Part shown: positions 26,871 through 32,147 of the stretch, piece by piece
How the letters are laid out: the number at the start of each line of letters is the position of its first letter
Numbering within the stretch: the first letter of the stretch is position 1
Source of the DNA: Sphingorhabdus lacus
GTDB lineage: Bacteria > Pseudomonadota > Alphaproteobacteria > Sphingomonadales > Sphingomonadaceae
Assembly (NCBI RefSeq): GCF_009768975.1
Contig: NZ_CP035733.1
Location: forward strand, 1,116,001 to 1,180,000
Reading direction: 5' to 3'
Length of the DNA stretch: 64,000 bases
The notes under the pieces: generated by a model
What the model was told of the DNA's origin: nothing
The model's database searches: none
The model's input: the letters and a program-made list of their open reading frames with translations, nothing else
Made by a program: the position numbers and the translations under genes

Positions 26871-26901
26871 ATCCCCCTCCCTAAACGGAGGGGGATTTTT
26901 T
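26871..26901. terminator. Bidirectional terminator
   Basis: A perfect 10-bp stem ATCCCCCTCC/GGAGGGGGAT (26871-26880 with 26887-26896) is followed by a T-run, between the PuuD-like gene and the convergent pspF. Confidence 0.9.
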
Positions 26902-27937
26902 AGCTCAACAGATCATGTTTCTTTAGCGTGTGCCTTAGCTGGTCATAGCTGAGGTTGAGCGCCTTTGCGGTCTGGCGCTGATTATAGCGGCATTTGGCCA
27001 GCGCCTGTTCCAGCACCGCCTTTTCATATTTCTCGGTCGCCTCGCGAAAGTCGGAGACGTCCACCATCTGACTCAAATCGGTCGAATAGCGCGGCTCGGC
27101 GGTTTCGTTGTCCTTGCTCGTCGGCGCGTTGGTCGGTGCGGCTGCGGCAATGCCGGTACGCCACGGGCTGTCGAACGGGTCGAACTGGATATAGTCCACC
27201 GGCTGGCTCGGGTCCGCCCAACGGTAGACCGCGCGTTCGACGACATTGCGCAGCTCGCGCACATTGCCCGGCCACAGATGGTTTTCCATCGCCCGCCGTG
27301 CCAGCTCGCCAAAGCCGGGCCAGCCATCCCAGCCCAGTTCCGCCGCCATACGCCGTCCGAAATAATCGGACAGCACCTCGACATCGCCCTCCCGCACCCG
27401 CAGCGGGGGTAAGGTCACGACTTCGAAGCAGAGCCGGTCCAAAAGGTCAGCGCGGAATTTTCCGGCCTCGACCATATTGGGCAGATGTTCGTTGGTCGCC
27501 GCAACGATGCGCACATCGACGCGGACGGGACGCGAGGATCCGATGCGGGTCACCTCGCCATATTCCACCGCGCGCAGCAACCGTTCCTGTGCACCCATGC
27601 TAAGCGTGCCCAGCTCGTCGAGGAATAGCGTCCCGCCATCCGCCTCTTCAAAGCGTCCCTCGCGAGAGCGCGTGGCACCCGTAAAGGCGCCTGCCTCATG
27701 CCCGAACAATTCCGCTTCGATCAGGGTCTCGGGCAGGGCAGCGCAGTTCATCGTCACCAGCGGCCCGTCCCAGCGGGAGCTGAGGCGGTGTAGACGCTCG
27801 GCGATCAATTCCTTACCCGTCCCCCGTTCGCCAACCACCAGCACAGGCCGGTTCAGCGGCGCAGCGCGGCTGGCACGCTCCACCGCGTCCAGAAAGGCGG
27901 ACGATTGCCCGATAAATTGATGGCTATCACGCTCCAT
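26900..27937 (-). CDS. pspF: Phage-shock operon activator PspF
   Basis: This 345-aa sigma-54 enhancer-binding protein has an AAA+ domain but no N-terminal sensor domain, as in PspF. Walker A is GERGTGKE (36-43), the sigma-54-contacting loop GAFTGA is 83-88, and Walker B ends in DE (107-108). The C-terminus is a Fis-type helix-turn-helix (about 315-340, NQRQTAKALNLSYDQL). In E. coli PspA inhibits it until envelope stress. The ATG at 27937 gives the expected N-terminus; a TTG frame extends 12 codons further. It is divergent from the psp operon. Confidence 0.94.
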   Translation of the reverse strand: MERDSHQFIGQSSAFLDAVERASRAAPLNRPVLVVGERGTGKELIAERLHRLSSRWDGPLVTMNCAALPETLIEAELFGHEAGAFTGATRSREGRFEEADGGTLFLDELGTLSMGAQERLLRAVEYGEVTRIGSSRPVRVDVRIVAATNEHLPNMVEAGKFRADLLDRLCFEVVTLPPLRVREGDVEVLSDYFGRRMAAELGWDGWPGFGELARRAMENHLWPGNVRELRNVVERAVYRWADPSQPVDYIQFDPFDSPWRTGIAAAAPTNAPTSKDNETAEPRYSTDLSQMVDVSDFREATEKYEKAVLEQALAKCRYNQRQTAKALNLSYDQLRHTLKKHDLLS

Positions 27938-28037: not shown

Positions 28038-28053
28038 TGGCACGCTCCCTGCA
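28038..28053 (+). promoter_or_regulatory. Sigma-54 promoter of the psp operon
   Basis: TGGCAC (28038-28043) and CTGCA (28049-28053) give the obligatory GG-N10-GC spacing (28039-28040 and 28051-28052), matching the -24/-12 consensus. It lies 54 bp before the first psp-region ORF and points away from pspF. The AT-rich stretch 27940-28030 in front is where PspF and IHF sites would be expected. Confidence 0.85.
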
Positions 28054-28106: not shown

Positions 28107-28295
28107 ATGAACACCGAACACAAAGCACAGGAAAGCTTCAAAGAAAGCGAAAGCCGTCTCTGGGTGGCCGTGGCCTTGTCCATGTCCATGATCTTCACCA
28201 GCTATGCGATTTCGGTGTTCAATCACCAGGAAGATAACCAGGTCAATGCATACACCCACTCCCAACGGCCTATCGTCGTCAGCTATCTTGCCTGA
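28107..28295 (+). CDS. 62-aa single-span membrane peptide, first gene behind the psp promoter
   Basis: This 62-aa protein has a charged N-terminus (residues 1-16), one hydrophobic span (about 18-40) and a short tail. A GGGAAG site precedes its ATG. It is not a canonical Psp protein; no family was recognised. Being the first ORF behind the sigma-54 promoter, it should be strongly induced by the same stress as pspA. A terminator-like hairpin separates it from pspA. Confidence 0.7.
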   Translation: MNTEHKAQESFKESESRLWVAVALSMSMIFTSYAISVFNHQEDNQVNAYTHSQRPIVVSYLA

Positions 28296-28395: not shown

Positions 28396-29079
28396 ATGGG
28401 CATTTTTTCACGAACCCGCGACATCATCGCCGCCAATGTCACCGACTTGCTCGACAAGTCGCAAGACCCGGCAAAGATGATCCGTATGATCATCCTCGAG
28501 ATGGAAGAAACCCTTGTCGAAGTCCGCGCCTCTGCCGCGCGCACGATCGCCGACCAGAAAGAACTGCGTCGCCATATCGACAAGCTGAACACCCTTGAGG
28601 CGGATTGGACGGACAAGGCGCATCTGGCGCTGTCGAAGGGTCGTGAAGACCTCGCCAAGGCGGCTTTGCTCGAAAAGCGCAAGGCCACCGACATGAAGGA
28701 CCAGCTGACCGCTGAAGTCGATGTTCTCAACGATGCCCTGAAAGCATCGGAGCAGGATATTCACAAGCTTCAGAAAAAGCTTGCCGATGCCCGCAGCCGC
28801 CAGAACGCGCTGATGACCCGCCTCGAAAGTGCGGAAAATCAGGTCAAGCTGCGCACCATGTACAATGGTGACAAGGTCCGCGAAGCCTTTTCCCGCTTTG
28901 ACGTGCTGGAGCGCCGGGTTGACGAAGCCCAAGGCTATGCAGACTCACTGGCTATCGGCAGCGACGCCCCACGCACTCTTGGTGACGAAATCGCCGCCCT
29001 CGAATCCTTCGATGTCGTCGATGCCGAACTGGAGGCGATGAAAAAAGCCATGAAGCAAGACGCGAAGAAGGAGGGTTGA
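28396..29079 (+). CDS. pspA: Phage shock protein A
   Basis: This 227-aa peripheral membrane protein of the PspA/IM30 (ESCRT-III-like) family coats damaged inner membrane and restrains PspF. MGIFSRTRDIIAANVTDLLDKSQDPAKMI is the typical amphipathic N-terminus, followed by a long coiled coil (about 25-190) with YNGDKVREAFSRFDVLERRVDEAQGYA. The upstream in-frame extension back to 28204 runs through the hairpin and is not translated. Confidence 0.96.
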   Translation: MGIFSRTRDIIAANVTDLLDKSQDPAKMIRMIILEMEETLVEVRASAARTIADQKELRRHIDKLNTLEADWTDKAHLALSKGREDLAKAALLEKRKATDMKDQLTAEVDVLNDALKASEQDIHKLQKKLADARSRQNALMTRLESAENQVKLRTMYNGDKVREAFSRFDVLERRVDEAQGYADSLAIGSDAPRTLGDEIAALESFDVVDAELEAMKKAMKQDAKKEG

Positions 29080-29083
29080 GATT

Positions 29084-29374
29084 ATGGACGGTGAAGTCAT
29101 CATGGTGCCGATTGTTGTTGGCATCCTCTTTCTCGGCCTCCCATGGCTCATCCTGCATCACGTCACGAAATGGAAAACGGCTGCGACGCTGACCAATGAT
29201 GACGAACGGCTTTTGGGCGAAATGTACGAACTCGCCCGCCGCCTGGAAGATCGCATGGATACGGTGGAACGTCTTGTTGGGCAGGAAAACCCCAATTTCA
29301 CACCGCGCCGCATCGACCATGAAGCAGAAGATTATACCGCAGAAAATATCCGCCGGCTGGAAAGGAACCGTTGA
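29084..29374 (+). CDS. pspB: Phage shock protein B
   Basis: This 96-aa inner-membrane protein has one N-terminal span (about 6-25) and a coiled coil ending LARRLEDRMDTVERLVGQENPNF, matching the E. coli PspB pattern of a RxRxxxLExIL core followed by a PNW/PNF-type motif. PspB and PspC signal envelope stress and bind PspA. The C-terminal extension (about 75-96) is longer than in E. coli. It starts 4 bp after pspA, behind an AAGGAGG site. Confidence 0.92.
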   Translation: MDGEVIMVPIVVGILFLGLPWLILHHVTKWKTAATLTNDDERLLGEMYELARRLEDRMDTVERLVGQENPNFTPRRIDHEAEDYTAENIRRLERNR

Positions 29375-29375
29375 G

Positions 29376-29756
29376 ATGAGCAGCAAACACACACAATTCT
29401 ATCTCGACAAGCAAAATGCCAAATGGAAAGGCGTGTGCGCGGGGATTTCCGACTATACCGGTGTGGATGTTCTCTGGGTCCGTCTCGGCGCAGTCATCCT
29501 GACACTGGCGGGCGGTTTCCCCTGGACGTTGGTCGCCTATTTCGGCGCCGCGTGGTTCGCCAACAAAAAGCCGATCCACCTTTATGTCGACAATGACGAC
29601 CAGAAATTCTGGCAAGGCGTCCGGCAATCCCCTGCCCGCACAACGCGCGACATTCGCTCGCGCTTCCGGGAAATCGACAACCGCCTTGCCGATGTCGAAC
29701 TCTATTATGTCAGCAACAACAAGCAGCTGGCCGACGAAATCGAAAGCCTGCGCTAA
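29376..29756 (+). CDS. pspC: Phage shock protein C
   Basis: This 126-aa protein has the PspC domain (about 9-70: KWKGVCAGISDYTGVDVLWVRL, then the span AVILTLAGGFPWTLVAYFGAAWF) and a C-terminal coiled coil that ends EIDNRLADVELYYVSNNKQLADEIESLR. That ending resembles the endings of the small proteins that follow, suggesting they interact through this segment. The start at 29376 is 1 bp after the pspB stop. Confidence 0.93.
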   Translation: MSSKHTQFYLDKQNAKWKGVCAGISDYTGVDVLWVRLGAVILTLAGGFPWTLVAYFGAAWFANKKPIHLYVDNDDQKFWQGVRQSPARTTRDIRSRFREIDNRLADVELYYVSNNKQLADEIESLR

Positions 29757-29781: not shown

Positions 29782-30054
29782 ATGGAAGCCGATGCATTTT
29801 TTCTGACAACATTCTTTGGAATGGGGATCGGAACCATCTGCACATTGACAATACAGTGGTACGGACGACGCAAGGTTAAAGCAGCCCTCAAGTCGGAAGG
29901 CATCACGCCGAGCCGCCAAACCGAGTTGTTGAGCAACGAGAATGAGGTGATGCGCGGCCAGATGCTAAGGCTCGAAGAACGCCTTTCGGTGATGGAACGC
30001 ATCACGACAGATAGCCATATGAGCTTAAATCAAGAGCTTGAACGCCTGCGTTAA
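29782..30054 (+). CDS. PspB-like small membrane coiled-coil protein 1
   Basis: This 90-aa protein has one span (about 6-26) followed by a basic stretch (YGRRKVKAALK) and a coiled coil, LLSNENEVMRGQMLRLEERLSVMERITTD...LNQELERLR. The core aligns by eye with the PspB coiled coil (LEDRMDTVERLV) and with the following proteins. No function is known. It sits 25 bp after pspC, preceded by a GGGAGGG site. Confidence 0.75.
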   Translation: MEADAFFLTTFFGMGIGTICTLTIQWYGRRKVKAALKSEGITPSRQTELLSNENEVMRGQMLRLEERLSVMERITTDSHMSLNQELERLR

Positions 30055-30078
30055 GCAGCGCGCAAAGGAGGAAATACC

Positions 30079-30237
30079 ATGTTCACTTTGATCGTCCTCG
30101 GCCTGATTGCCTGGTTTGCTTACCGGCACTTCGCCAAGAAAAAACGGGATGCCGACCAACGCAACTGGCGGGTCGAGTATCGCAATTCGGACATTAAACC
30201 GGTGACCCGCCGTTTACCCTGGAAGGACATAGCATGA
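30079..30237 (+). CDS. 52-aa membrane peptide inside the psp array
   Basis: This short ORF begins at ATG 30079 behind a near-perfect AAAGGAGG site. It reads MFTLIVLGLIAWFAYRHFAK and continues with a basic tail ending in PVTRRLPWKDIA. One span (about 2-15) is followed by a KKKR anchor; there is no coiled-coil motif like that of its neighbours. Its stop overlaps the next ATG (ATGA), supporting real translation. It is short enough to be missed by most gene finders. Confidence 0.7.
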   Translation: MFTLIVLGLIAWFAYRHFAKKKRDADQRNWRVEYRNSDIKPVTRRLPWKDIA

Positions 30238-30524
30238 GTTTTGGAGGCCCATCTTTCATCGTCGCGATCGTCATGATCTGCACCGCCGGATGGATTATCA
30301 ACAACTGGATCCGGGCACGCCACGGCTACCCACTTGAAAATGAGTGGGGTGGAATGACACCGAAGGTCGATGTCGATGCCGAACGCAAAATTACCCTGCT
30401 GAGCAACGAAAATGAATCGCTGAACGGCAAGGTCGGCAATCTGGAAGAGCGCATTGCGGTTCTGGAACGCATCGTCACCGACAAGGCGGGACGCCTGTCG
30501 GAAGAAATCGAGAAACTACGCTAA
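30234..30524 (+). CDS. PspB-like small membrane coiled-coil protein 2
   Basis: This 96-aa protein has one span (about 7-23), a linker with HGYPLENEWGG, and the coiled coil ITLLSNENESLNGKVGNLEERIAVLERIVTD...LSEEIEKLR. It shares the YPL-(x)3-W-G linker with protein 3 (NGYPLDGAWGQ), so these two look like the closest paralogues. It is coupled to the 52-aa peptide by a 4-bp overlap. Confidence 0.75.
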   Translation: MSFGGPSFIVAIVMICTAGWIINNWIRARHGYPLENEWGGMTPKVDVDAERKITLLSNENESLNGKVGNLEERIAVLERIVTDKAGRLSEEIEKLR

Positions 30525-30545
30525 ACGCGAAGGGAGGGAATAATC

Positions 30546-30875
30546 ATGGCTGATCCTACTTTAGTCGAAGGCTTAATGAAGCTCGCAATGCCAATCACGC
30601 TCATCACCGTAGTCGGTGTGGCAGGATGGGTCGCGACCACATGGTTGCGCATCAAAAACGGTTATCCGCTGGATGGAGCCTGGGGTCAGGCAGTCTATCC
30701 GAAAAATGACCAGGAAGCGATCGAACGGGTTCGCCTGCTGAGCCAGGAAAATGCCCAACTGCGCGCAGAGCTAGGTTCAGTCAAAGACCGGCTCGCCAAT
30801 ATCGAGAAGATCGTTGTTGACGATAGCCACAGGCTGACCGCGGAAATCGACGCACTTCGCGGCCCGTCAAATTAG
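30546..30875 (+). CDS. PspB-like small membrane coiled-coil protein 3
   Basis: This 109-aa protein has a span at about 14-33, the linker NGYPLDGAWGQAVYPKND shared with protein 2, and a coiled coil VRLLSQENAQLRAELGSVKDRLANIEKIVVDDSHRLTAEIDALR. It is the longest of the array. A GGGAGGG site precedes it by a few nucleotides. No enzymatic motif is seen. Confidence 0.75.
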   Translation: MADPTLVEGLMKLAMPITLITVVGVAGWVATTWLRIKNGYPLDGAWGQAVYPKNDQEAIERVRLLSQENAQLRAELGSVKDRLANIEKIVVDDSHRLTAEIDALRGPSN

Positions 30876-30887
30876 GAGGCAGGATTG

Positions 30888-31178
30888 ATGGACATCAACC
30901 CTCTCCTGATACCCATTCTTGGAATATCCTGCGGGCTACTCGCGATATTTGGTGGAGTTTTTGTGAAGCCCTGGTTCAAGCTGAAGGAGCAGCGCATGGC
31001 CGTGGAAGCCGAAATGATCGCCGAAAAGGCAGCCCAATATGCAAGCAAGCAAGCCGTGTTGGAAGAACGGGTTGCTGTGCTCGAACGGATCATTACCGAC
31101 AGCGGGTACGAAGTCGCCCACGCGATAGAAAGTCTCCGTGAACCCCCCGTTTCACGGATCGAAAAAGAGGAAGTGTAA
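30888..31178 (+). CDS. PspB-like small membrane coiled-coil protein 4
   Basis: This 96-aa protein has a span at about 5-27, a helical linker rich in Ala, Glu and Lys, and the core VLEERVAVLERIITDSGYEVAHAIESLR with a short charged tail. The ATG at 30888 is chosen over the TTG one codon earlier because AGGAGG (30874-30879) is 8 nt from it. Confidence 0.75.
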   Translation: MDINPLLIPILGISCGLLAIFGGVFVKPWFKLKEQRMAVEAEMIAEKAAQYASKQAVLEERVAVLERIITDSGYEVAHAIESLREPPVSRIEKEEV

Positions 31179-31180
31179 CG

Positions 31181-31438
31181 ATGTTCGATGAATTGTGGAT
31201 TTTAATACCGCTTGCACCGTTCATTCTTGGTGGTTTCGCTATTTGGTCGAAACACAAACAAAAAGAGATGGAGATGGGCGGCAGTCAACAACGAATGCTG
31301 GATGATCCAGACGCCAATCACATGCGGGAGGAGATCCGCACGCTGAAGGATCGCATTCAGGTTCTTGAACGGATCGCGACCGACAATAACAGCGCCACAG
31401 ATCTCAACCGTCAGATAGAGGAATTGCGTAACCGCTAA
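31181..31438 (+). CDS. PspB-like small membrane coiled-coil protein 5
   Basis: This 85-aa protein has a span at about 4-21, a basic segment (SKHKQKEMEMGG) and the core EEIRTLKDRIQVLERIATDNNSATDLNRQIEELRNR. Of the array it is the most like classical PspB, whose E. coli form carries RERIQALESILD at this place. It starts 2 bp after the previous stop. Confidence 0.77.
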   Translation: MFDELWILIPLAPFILGGFAIWSKHKQKEMEMGGSQQRMLDDPDANHMREEIRTLKDRIQVLERIATDNNSATDLNRQIEELRNR

Positions 31439-31472
31439 GGCGGACGCGAAGAAGGAAGGAAAGGAAGGAACC

Positions 31473-31715
31473 ATGCCACAGGATCCTAATTTCTATATCA
31501 TCGTAGGTGCCTTTGCCGTCCTGTGCGTCGGTATTGTCTCCACGCTGAGTTTGCGCGGCTGGCGCGACTGGATTGCGCTAAAGCATGCCGAACTCGACCT
31601 TGCGCGGCAGGGCAGCGATGCTCCGGTGCCGTCGGCTACCTCACGGATCGAAGTCGCCGATTTGAAAGAACGTGTGAAAAAGCTGGAAGCTATTGCGGCA
31701 GGGATTGATATCTGA
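31473..31715 (+). CDS. PspB-like small membrane coiled-coil protein 6
   Basis: This 80-aa protein has a span at about 7-26, a helix (WRDWIALKHAELDLARQG) and a shortened core, RIEVADLKERVKKLEAIAAGID, without the EIExLR ending of its relatives. A ladder of AAGGAAGG repeats (31450-31470) precedes its start. It is the last of the array. Confidence 0.72.
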   Translation: MPQDPNFYIIVGAFAVLCVGIVSTLSLRGWRDWIALKHAELDLARQGSDAPVPSATSRIEVADLKERVKKLEAIAAGIDI

Positions 31716-31742: not shown

Positions 31743-32147
31743 ATGAGCGCTCTGAACGACATTTTTGAAGAATATGATTTTCTGGACGCAGACGACCGTT
31801 ACCGTTTGCTGATCGACCTTGGCAAAGAATTGCCCGCAATGCCCGACGCGCTTAAAACCGATGCGACGTTGGTGCGCGGATGTTCGGCGAGCGTGTGGGT
31901 TTATCCGGTTACCGATGCGGACAAATTATCGTTTCTCGCTGACAGTAACGCCGCAATCACCAAAGGCATTATCGCGCTCGTGCTGAAAACCGTCGAAGGC
32001 AAGTCCGCCGGCGAAATCGGCAAGACAGATATCGAGGGCGCCCTCGCCCCGTTCGACCTCAAAAACCAGCTGAGTTCGAACAGGACGCAGGGCATCCCCA
32101 ATATGATCGCGCTAATCCGCGAAACCGCCGCGCGCTACGCCGGCTGA
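31743..32147 (+). CDS. sufE: SufE-family sulfur acceptor
   Basis: This 134-aa protein accepts persulfide sulfur from the cysteine desulfurase SufS for Fe-S cluster assembly. The acceptor cysteine is about residue 47 in VRGCSASVWV, and the C-terminal NQLSSNRTQGIPNMIALIRE is the family signature. No other suf gene is in the window. It begins 27 bp after the last psp-array gene and may belong to that transcript. Its last 13 bp overlap the convergent PepSY gene. Confidence 0.93.
   Translation: MSALNDIFEEYDFLDADDRYRLLIDLGKELPAMPDALKTDATLVRGCSASVWVYPVTDADKLSFLADSNAAITKGIIALVLKTVEGKSAGEIGKTDIEGALAPFDLKNQLSSNRTQGIPNMIALIRETAARYAG

What the first reader, a model, noticed from the sequence alone, without database searches (positions are those of the whole stretch)
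29782..31715. An array of PspB-like mini membrane proteins behind pspABC
Six consecutive ORFs (29782, 30234, 30546, 30888, 31181, 31473), 80-109 aa, each have one N-terminal span and a C-terminal coiled coil with a shared core (LEERIxVLERIxTD, five of six then ending EIExLR-like). The core is also visible in PspB (LEDRMDTVERLV) and the EIExLR ending in PspC. The spans and linkers differ, so the array looks like repeated duplication with the interaction motif held constant. Inference: interchangeable PspB-type subunits that tune PspA recruitment to different membrane insults. Classical psp operons have one PspB.
Basis: partly seen in the sequence, partly recalled or inferred. Interest (0 to 1): 0.85.

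Follow-up and report, generated by a model that had tools for sequence, protein, structure and literature searches.

The report
PspB/PspC-tail-like array in psp operon
Sphingomonad bacteria carry, right behind the classic membrane-repair genes pspABC, a conserved row of small one-span membrane proteins that share a helical tail with PspB and PspC but have different membrane ends, so one repair machine may be served by several different membrane anchors.

Summary
The six show purifying selection, follow pspABC with gaps of -4 to 34 nt, and lie behind a sigma54-type site found in 74 of 78 relatives. Similar rows, mostly in the same order and ending in o6 then sufE, occur across sphingomonads (0-9 members in 67 countable loci). 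As a family they are homologs of PspB and, at least as clearly, of PspC's C-terminal helix: these are the families most often matched in an 18,950-model library. The window's six stay under the PspB cut-offs. Unlinked relatives occur in other families; all 14 clear ones found outside the family sit in PspA-bearing genomes. Three sphingomonad genomes have PspA, a PspC and array members but no PspB. Membrane parts vary far more than the helix (42 against 6 clusters at one threshold), and a DNA mosaic suggests that the window's o5 got its membrane part by exchange. Most likely these are alternative membrane anchors presenting the PspC-type helix to PspA/PspB/PspC; binding is inferred. 'PspB duplicates' in psp operons are in print (one sentence): new variant of a known kind.

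The parts
26900..27937 (-). pspF-like sigma54 activator (divergent; ORF list runs to 27973, ATG at 27937)
   Evidence: ORF; divergent pspF as described for psp operons in PMC11237479 (passage); name from its ORF sequence by eye, no family scan was run on it
28038..28053 (+). sigma54 (-24/-12)-like promoter site TGGCACGCTCCCTGCA (consensus recalled)
   Evidence: only perfect match in the window; a site with at most 1 mismatch in the 500 nt before pspA in 74 of the 78 relatives that have 500 nt there, against 0 of 357 control stretches behind pspA
28107..28295 (+). 62-aa membrane or exported ORF ahead of pspA
   Evidence: a short ORF in this place was called in 55 of 81 loci, sequence variable
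28396..29079 (+). pspA
   Evidence: TIGR02977 E 1.4e-79, over cut-off
29084..29374 (+). pspB
   Evidence: TIGR02976 E 7.3e-26, over cut-off
29376..29756 (+). pspC with C-terminal helix (residues 90-125) carrying the module
   Evidence: TIGR02978 E 6.9e-35, over cut-off; AlphaFold2 helix 90-125, mean pLDDT 63
29782..30054 (+). array member o1: span plus coil
   Evidence: (PspC tail E 0.0051)
30079..30237 (+). oX, 52-aa single-span ORF without coil; not a family member
   Evidence: found in 18 of 81 loci
30234..30524 (+). array member o2
   Evidence: (PspC tail E 0.037); AlphaFold2: helix 6-30, helix 47-95, mean pLDDT 73.7
30546..30875 (+). array member o3
   Evidence: PspC tail E 0.0021; class is one clade, 99/98
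30888..31178 (+). array member o4
   Evidence: no PspB or PspC match singly
31181..31438 (+). array member o5, with an N-terminal module unlike that of its closest orthologs
   Evidence: (PspB PRK09458 E 0.067 over residues 8-66)
31115..31354 (+). stretch of apparent other ancestry: end of o4, gap, N module of o5
   Evidence: identity to L035/L037 0.33-0.53 over 31115-31314 and 0.65-0.72 in 31315-31354, against 0.68-0.95 to the left and 0.82-1.00 to the right (up to 31714); to L036 0.68-0.90 over the stretch
31473..31715 (+). array member o6, most divergent core, most often found
   Evidence: 204 of 296 genomes of the order; no PspB or PspC match singly
31743..32147 (+). sufE-like gene that ends the conserved block
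   Evidence: in 70 of 81 loci; name by eye, not scanned against a family library

Best explanation
A paralogous family of small inner-membrane proteins, encoded and kept as part of the psp operon. Each has one N-terminal membrane span, a variable linker and a C-terminal helix homologous to PspB's helix and PspC's C-terminal helix. SHOWN by sequence: the gene array, family-level homology, a conserved sigma54-type site, old classes, purifying selection, co-occurrence with PspA. INFERRED: the block is transcribed as one unit from that site under PspF; the helix faces the cytoplasm; as for E. coli PspC, whose leucine-zipper region is needed for PspA contact and full psp induction, the helix docks onto PspA and/or pairs with PspB, PspC and the other members. 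The different spans and linkers then place the same contact helix in different membrane states or regions, so several anchors recruit PspA, or release it from PspF, beside or in place of the single PspBC pair.
For: Kinship: in NCBIfam (18,950 models) 24 of 25 relatives match PspB (best 2.2e-10) and 24 of 25 PspC (best 1.3e-6), next non-Psp family 2 of 25; of 30 array proteins (o6 not among them) 22 match PspC and 17 PspB, next non-Psp family 6. In reverse, profile A6 finds genes beside pspA that are PspB or PspC by place, and the PspB profile finds array members over span plus helix (E 7e-6 to 0.03). The PspC model segment matched (68-121) overlaps, as far as numbering can be compared, the E. 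coli leucine zipper (77-98) needed for PspA contact (PMC3068692, section 21). Operon: gaps -4 to 34 nt and ribosome-site-like stretches, promoter- and terminator-like signals not above chance inside, sigma54 site in 74 of 78 loci. Co-occurrence: 14 of 14 genomes outside the family with a clear unlinked relative have PspA, against 29 of 286 overall. No PspB but PspA, a PspC and array members in G077, G169, G206; in G077 PspC also lacks its tail.
Against: No binding, localisation or expression data. The PspA contact is carried over from E. coli PspC, a distant relative; there PspB and PspC meet through their spans, and PspC's C-terminus has been proposed to face the periplasm, with two topologies suggested (PMC3068692), which would weaken the cytoplasmic-helix inference. 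o6, the class found most often, has the most divergent core, no single match to PspB or PspC and no profile likeness to PspB (probability 2; not compared with PspC). One complete psp locus (L107) has no array, and its genome has only one weak match, which by its place is PspC itself. Relatives outside the family mostly lie away from pspA. Co-occurrence counts are inflated by relatedness.
Confidence: 0.55

Rival explanations
1. Hetero-oligomeric sensor: the members pair only with each other and with PspB/PspC through the helix and spans, diversifying what the PspBC complex can sense; they do not touch PspA themselves.
For: Shared helix in PspB, PspC and array; in E. coli PspB self-associates and meets PspC through membrane parts (abstract passage and section 21 of PMC3068692).
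Against: PspB is missing in three genomes that keep array members, and G077 has neither PspB nor the PspC tail; unlinked relatives track PspA, though PspB and PspC were not tallied in those genomes.
Confidence: 0.22
2. Independent effectors: small stress proteins of the inner membrane (in the manner of PspD or PspG) that stabilise the membrane themselves and use the helix only to self-assemble.
For: Unlinked genes outside the psp operon; spans and linkers differ strongly while the coil is kept.
Against: Specific kinship of the helix to PspB and PspC rather than to any coiled coil; unlinked relatives occur with PspA.
Confidence: 0.15
3. Generic coiled coils: the likeness to PspB and PspC is convergence of heptad repeats on unrelated one-span proteins.
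For: Single window members score weakly (best E 0.0021), and in Pfam bZIP_1 is matched as often as PspB (13 of 30 each).
Against: PspB/PspC are the families matched most often in NCBIfam; PspB profile hits cover span and helix and fall at the psp locus.
Confidence: 0.05
4. Relics or spurious ORFs kept only by linkage.
For: Array size varies from 0 to 9.
Against: dN/dS 0.00-0.34 where computable; class order largely kept across genera.
Confidence: 0.02

Closest known systems
PspB (TIGR02976, PF06667)
   Same: Small, one N-terminal span, C-terminal helix with a like core (LEDRMDTVERLV in the window's PspB); same operon.
   Different: The window's six score under the curated cut-offs; PspB forms its own clade on a long branch in an unrooted tree; five of six add an EIExLR-like end. 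A few relatives do carry a precomputed PF06667 (P0001 of the 120 listed; P0134 and P0206 of the 120).
PspC C-terminal helix (TIGR02978 positions 82-121)
   Same: Same 35-40 residue module RLxxxExxxTSxxxxLxxEIExLR.
   Different: Members lack the PspC domain (PF04024) and carry one span in its place.
PspB duplicates in psp operons (PMC11237479, section 17, example AOL22920.1)
   Same: Extra PspB-like genes in a psp operon.
   Different: The paper gives one sentence and one accession; no array, classes, module exchange or family-wide conservation is described in the passages and section read, and 'sphingo' does not occur in its main text. Supplements and web app not seen; the organism of AOL22920.1 was not looked up.
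PspD, PspG (E. coli)
   Same: Small proteins of the PspF regulon; PspG contacts PspC (abstract passage of PMC3068692).
   Different: No PspD or PspG family is listed for the six in Pfam or NCBIfam.

Membership tests
PspB (TIGR02976 / PF06667) | Score over the curated cut-off | tested here: not met
   best for the window's six: 13.6 bits to PRK09458 (cut-off 90), 11.2 to TIGR02976 (51.7), 11.4 to PF06667 (25.6); a few relatives elsewhere carry PF06667
PspB (TIGR02976 / PF06667) | Significant profile kinship at family level | tested here: met
   24 of 25 and 17 of 30 members at E up to 1, best 2.2e-10 and 1.5e-7; hhalign probability 86, helix part only
PspB (TIGR02976 / PF06667) | One N-terminal span and a C-terminal cytoplasmic helix | tested here: inconclusive
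   two helices predicted for o2 (6-30 and 47-95), the only member modelled; the side of the membrane is inferred by eye from positive residues after the span, not tested
PspB (TIGR02976 / PF06667) | Binds PspC and takes part in psp induction | not testable with these tools
   needs two-hybrid, pull-down and genetics
PspC (TIGR02978) | N-terminal PspC domain PF04024 | tested here: not met
   no hit listed for any of the six
PspC (TIGR02978) | C-terminal helix module | tested here: met
   o1, o2, o3 match positions within 68-121 (E 0.0021-0.037); A1 against the PspC profile probability 93 over 37 columns; o4, o5 and o6 singly have no PspC hit
psp operon of the PspF/sigma54 type | Divergent pspF, sigma54 site, pspABC, array on the same strand | tested here: met
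   (pspF by eye); actual transcription not tested

The most novel reading that the evidence does not exclude
A modular sensor array for the bacterial ESCRT-III protein PspA: one constant PspA-contact helix is mounted on many exchangeable membrane modules. The helix-coding DNA also serves as the joint at which recombination swaps, adds or deletes modules, so each species assembles its own set of membrane-stress anchors.
Probability: 0.25. Interest if true: 0.78.

Novelty: new variant of a known kind. Interest (0 to 1): 0.58.

Why it matters
From general knowledge: how PspA, the bacterial ESCRT-III relative, is directed to damaged membrane is not settled, and models rest largely on the single PspBC pair of enterobacteria. 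A bacterial family that keeps several paralogs of the PspC/PspB helix on different spans, some of whose genomes lack PspB while keeping them, offers a natural separation of sensor (span and linker) from adaptor (helix). It can be tested by gene removal and helix swaps in harmless soil or freshwater sphingomonads. It would also give a meaning to thousands of proteins now mostly unnamed or called hypothetical: in each of three searches a capped set of 7,997 candidates gave 6,751-7,990 hits.

Tried and rejected
Tried without gain: solved-structure searches with the PspB profile and the A6 profile gave no clear relative, best E 0.37 and 0.0035. The first sigma54 pattern had the wrong spacing and found nothing; corrected. 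DNA repeats within the array are weak, best 71% over 77 nt between o1 and o2, so recent tandem copying was rejected as the origin of the window's six. A tree of 184 rows and 94 columns could not place the root or the solos; 69 of 180 inner branches are open and its bootstrap had not settled, so 'array descends from PspB' or 'from the solos' is left undecided. DivIC was fetched as a control family but not used; the library scans serve as control, and of these Pfam is the less specific. The class-wide search (6 of 289 genomes with a match) and the phylum-wide one (27 of 299) set the range; G557 is a weak hit at a psp locus that alternates PspB-like and PspC-like genes. Fold searches were not run: the models are mostly isolated helices of modest confidence. 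No paper on a sphingomonad psp array turned up in the searches (open-access library only; two Yersinia PspB-PspC papers are not held, and are not relied on).
Full report
WHAT IS THERE. The window is from a Sphingorhabdus-like genome: its PspA is 100% identical to that of MAG BC.033, contig PNNB01000013.1, which is titled Sphingopyxis sp., and 94-99% identical to those of several genomes titled Sphingorhabdus; its genome is one contig of 3.46 Mb. Behind a divergent pspF-like gene (named by eye) come pspA (28396), pspB (29084) and pspC (29376), all over their NCBIfam equivalog cut-offs. Then come six small ORFs, here o1-o6, at exactly the stated places, with an extra 52-aa membrane ORF, oX, between o1 and o2. 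Gaps are -4 to 34 nt, and the starts from pspB to o6 have a ribosome-site-like purine-rich stretch ahead. Promoter-like and terminator-like signals in the block are not above chance (4 found, 2.8 expected; 6 found, 6.2 expected). A perfect sigma54-type site lies at 28038, the only one in 64 kb (consensus recalled). Within 500 nt ahead of pspA a site with at most one mismatch occurs in 74 of the 78 relatives that have that much sequence, and in 0 of 357 control stretches taken behind pspA.

IS IT REAL. In 80 named loci plus the window, a simple gene caller and phmmer against the window's genes gave, by best hit, pspB in 81, pspC in 74, o1 in 11, oX in 18, o2 in 67, o3 in 52, o4 in 41, o5 in 68, o6 in 72 and sufE in 70 of 81 loci. 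In the 67 loci where both pspC and sufE were called, the number of members was 0 in 1, 2 in 4, 3 in 10, 4 in 17, 5 in 27, 6 in 7 and 9 in 1; the other 14 loci are cut by contig ends or lack a called pspC or sufE. The class order was the same in all but 5 of the 67, and o6 was last in 65. dN/dS of the six against up to seven relatives was 0.00-0.34 where it could be computed; comparisons with saturated dS are not counted, which leaves one for o1 and two for o4. The o6 profile matches 204 of 296 genomes of the order; the list, sorted by kinship, shows 204 of 213 in the window's own family and no match outside it, though 72 rows without a match are not printed.

WHAT IT IS RELATED TO. Singly the window's members are weak: PspC positions within 68-121 match o1, o2 and o3 at E 0.0051, 0.037 and 0.0021, PspB matches o5 at 0.067 and o2 at 0.34, and o4 and o6 match neither. 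As a family the signal is firm. For 30 array proteins (o6 not among them) NCBIfam gives PspC (TIGR02978) 22 and PspB (TIGR02976) 17 (best 1.5e-7), next non-Psp family 6; Pfam is less specific, with PspB 13 and bZIP_1 13 of 30. For 25 relatives from other families of the order and beyond (two of them from the short array of G077) NCBIfam gives PspB 24 (best 2.2e-10) and PspC 24, next non-Psp family 2, and Pfam gives PspB 21, DivIC 7. The PspB profile run on 16 chosen whole genomes lists array members among its best hits after PspB itself, over span and helix (for example G117 positions 8-66, E 7e-6); in G169 and G206 longer frames elsewhere score slightly better. In the other direction the A6 profile finds genes directly beside pspA that are PspB or PspC by place (G611, G655, G578; G791; with PspA places). 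Profile-profile probabilities are 93 for array against PspC tail, 86 against PspB (helix only), 90 against o6, but 2 for o6 against PspB and 30 for PspB against PspC; no separate null was run for these. In a poorly resolved, unrooted tree PspB, o3 and o6 are each one clade, o4-like proteins fall in one supported set of 23, and o1, o2 and o5 as assigned by best hit are not single clades; PspB sits on a long branch of its own. So: kin of PspB and of PspC's tail, apart from PspB proper. A few relatives do reach PF06667 (P0001, P0134, P0206 among the 240 rows listed).

DISTRIBUTION AND CO-OCCURRENCE. In 41 genomes (own and 40 relatives) PspA was found in 36 and a match to the array profile in 35; the five genomes without PspA have no match. 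One of the 35 (G026) matches only in its PspC, by place. Within the own genus all matches lie at the psp locus except one 86-aa protein of G022. Among 16 genomes of other families of the order, a relative apart from, or (G037) also next to, pspA is present in 10 of 12 with PspA and 0 of 4 without (Fisher 0.008, not corrected for kinship; G026 counted as absent). In 299 genomes across the phylum PspA occurs in 42; the A6 profile hits 30, of which 29 have PspA (the exception G758 is weak, E 8e-6, 76% complete). Outside the family, 14 genomes have a clear relative (E up to 1e-10), in each case about 80 kb or more from pspA or on another contig, and all 14 have PspA, against 29 of 286 (p 4e-16, inflated by kinship); many PspA genomes outside the family (15 of 29) have none. 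In the 14 regions read from nine of these genomes the genes were not beside psp genes; some genomes have two. The nine family genomes without o6 include eight with PspA and one (G286) with neither.

LOSS OF PspB. Of the 16 chosen genomes, 12 have PspB over the cut-off. G169 and G206 have pspA, pspC and three array members and no PspB; G077 has pspA, a PspC without its tail (88 aa) and two array members and no PspB; G286 lacks PspA too. Against essentiality of the array: in locus L107 (Sphingobium vermicomposti) pspABC is complete with no member behind it, and a search of that genome finds one weak match (E 6e-4), which by its place is PspC.

MODULES. Splitting 323 array proteins before the core gives 42 clusters of N parts and 6 of coil parts at one threshold, 20 and 2 at another. 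Nearly every N type goes with one coil type, but one type (IPLAPFxxGGxAIW, 11 proteins) occurs with three coil types at the first threshold. Pairs with near-identical coils but unlike N parts are 441 of 3344, whereas pairs with alike N parts and unlike coils are 2 of 1595; 290 of the 441 are o6 pairs, so general divergence of N parts explains much of this. In the window an exchange can be seen more directly: its o5 coil is 85% identical to that of L035 and L037 while the N part is 24% identical. At DNA level identity to L035 and L037 is 0.68-0.95 through o4 up to about 31114, 0.33-0.53 over 31115-31314, 0.65-0.72 in the next 40 nt, and 0.82-1.00 from 31355 to 31714; over the same stretch L036 is 0.68-0.90 identical though on both sides it is mostly less like the window. 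This looks like a mosaic with joints in, or next to, the coil-coding parts of o4 and o5; no formal recombination test was run. Proteins that join two neighbours (P0001, P0002) could come from such events or from sequencing faults.

STRUCTURE. AlphaFold2 gives o2 a helix at 6-30 and a long helix at 47-95 (mean pLDDT 73.7, 30 sequences), and PspC a last helix at 90-125 (mean pLDDT 63). Both are monomer models of modest confidence and say nothing of partners. No clear solved relative was found.

HOW IT MOST LIKELY WORKS. In E. coli the leucine-zipper part of PspC (residues 77-98) is needed for PspA contact and for full psp induction, while PspB meets PspC through the span; the same paper discusses a periplasmic or dual placing of PspC's C-terminus (PMC3068692, passages and section 21 read). 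The array's constant helix aligns with that part of PspC and beyond (PspC model positions 68-121; model and E. coli numbering are only roughly the same). The simplest reading is that each member is a further membrane anchor that offers this helix to PspA or to the PspBC complex, with span and linker deciding where or when. This step is inference; a hetero-oligomeric sensor without PspA contact is the main rival.

KNOWN OR NEW. [quoted passage not shown] this agrees with the PspC-tail kinship found here. PMC9239133 (passages read) does not contain 'sphingo' in its main text. Where the listed array-type proteins have a name it is nearly always 'hypothetical protein'; some marine solos are named Phage shock protein B in UniRef. 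No description of an ordered, family-wide array turned up in the searches. Verdict: new variant of a known kind.

Noticed in passing
window 30079-30237: oX, a 52-aa single-span ORF inside the array, seen in 18 of 81 loci, all among L035-L072 and the window; dN/dS 0.02-0.13 where computable.
   Followed up: partly
L086:10333-10455 and similar places in other Sphingomonas-type loci: A 38-43 aa ORF with one span and an end like RDRPVRRA, usually between o4 and o5; at least 11 distinct ones were printed.
   Followed up: no
window 28107-28295: A small membrane or exported ORF between the sigma54 site and pspA; a short ORF is called there in 55 of 81 loci, with variable sequence and, in most of those printed, an LA or YLA end.
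   Followed up: partly
L256:4038-5460: A second psp locus, pspA2-pspC2-o6, apart from the main locus (L257), which has six array members but no o6; several genomes of this genus have two PspA.
   Followed up: partly
L131:4976-5236: An unlinked 86-aa protein with the array coil but no evident span.
   Followed up: no
L196:1064-2890: A psp locus that alternates PspB, a short PspC, a PspB-like protein and a PspC with tail.
   Followed up: no
P0001, P0002: Proteins that join two neighbouring array members in one chain; P0001 carries a precomputed PspB domain.
   Followed up: no
L126:5035-5509: Another family of the order has a short second PspC-like ORF and one array-type gene directly behind pspABC, and a second copy elsewhere in the genome (L125).
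   Followed up: partly
window 31743-32147: A sufE-like gene ends the block in most loci; in four of seven psp loci read from other families of the order (L134-L137) a sufE-like gene, recognised by eye, also lies 0.2-4 kb behind pspC, so this neighbourhood may be older than the array.
   Followed up: partly
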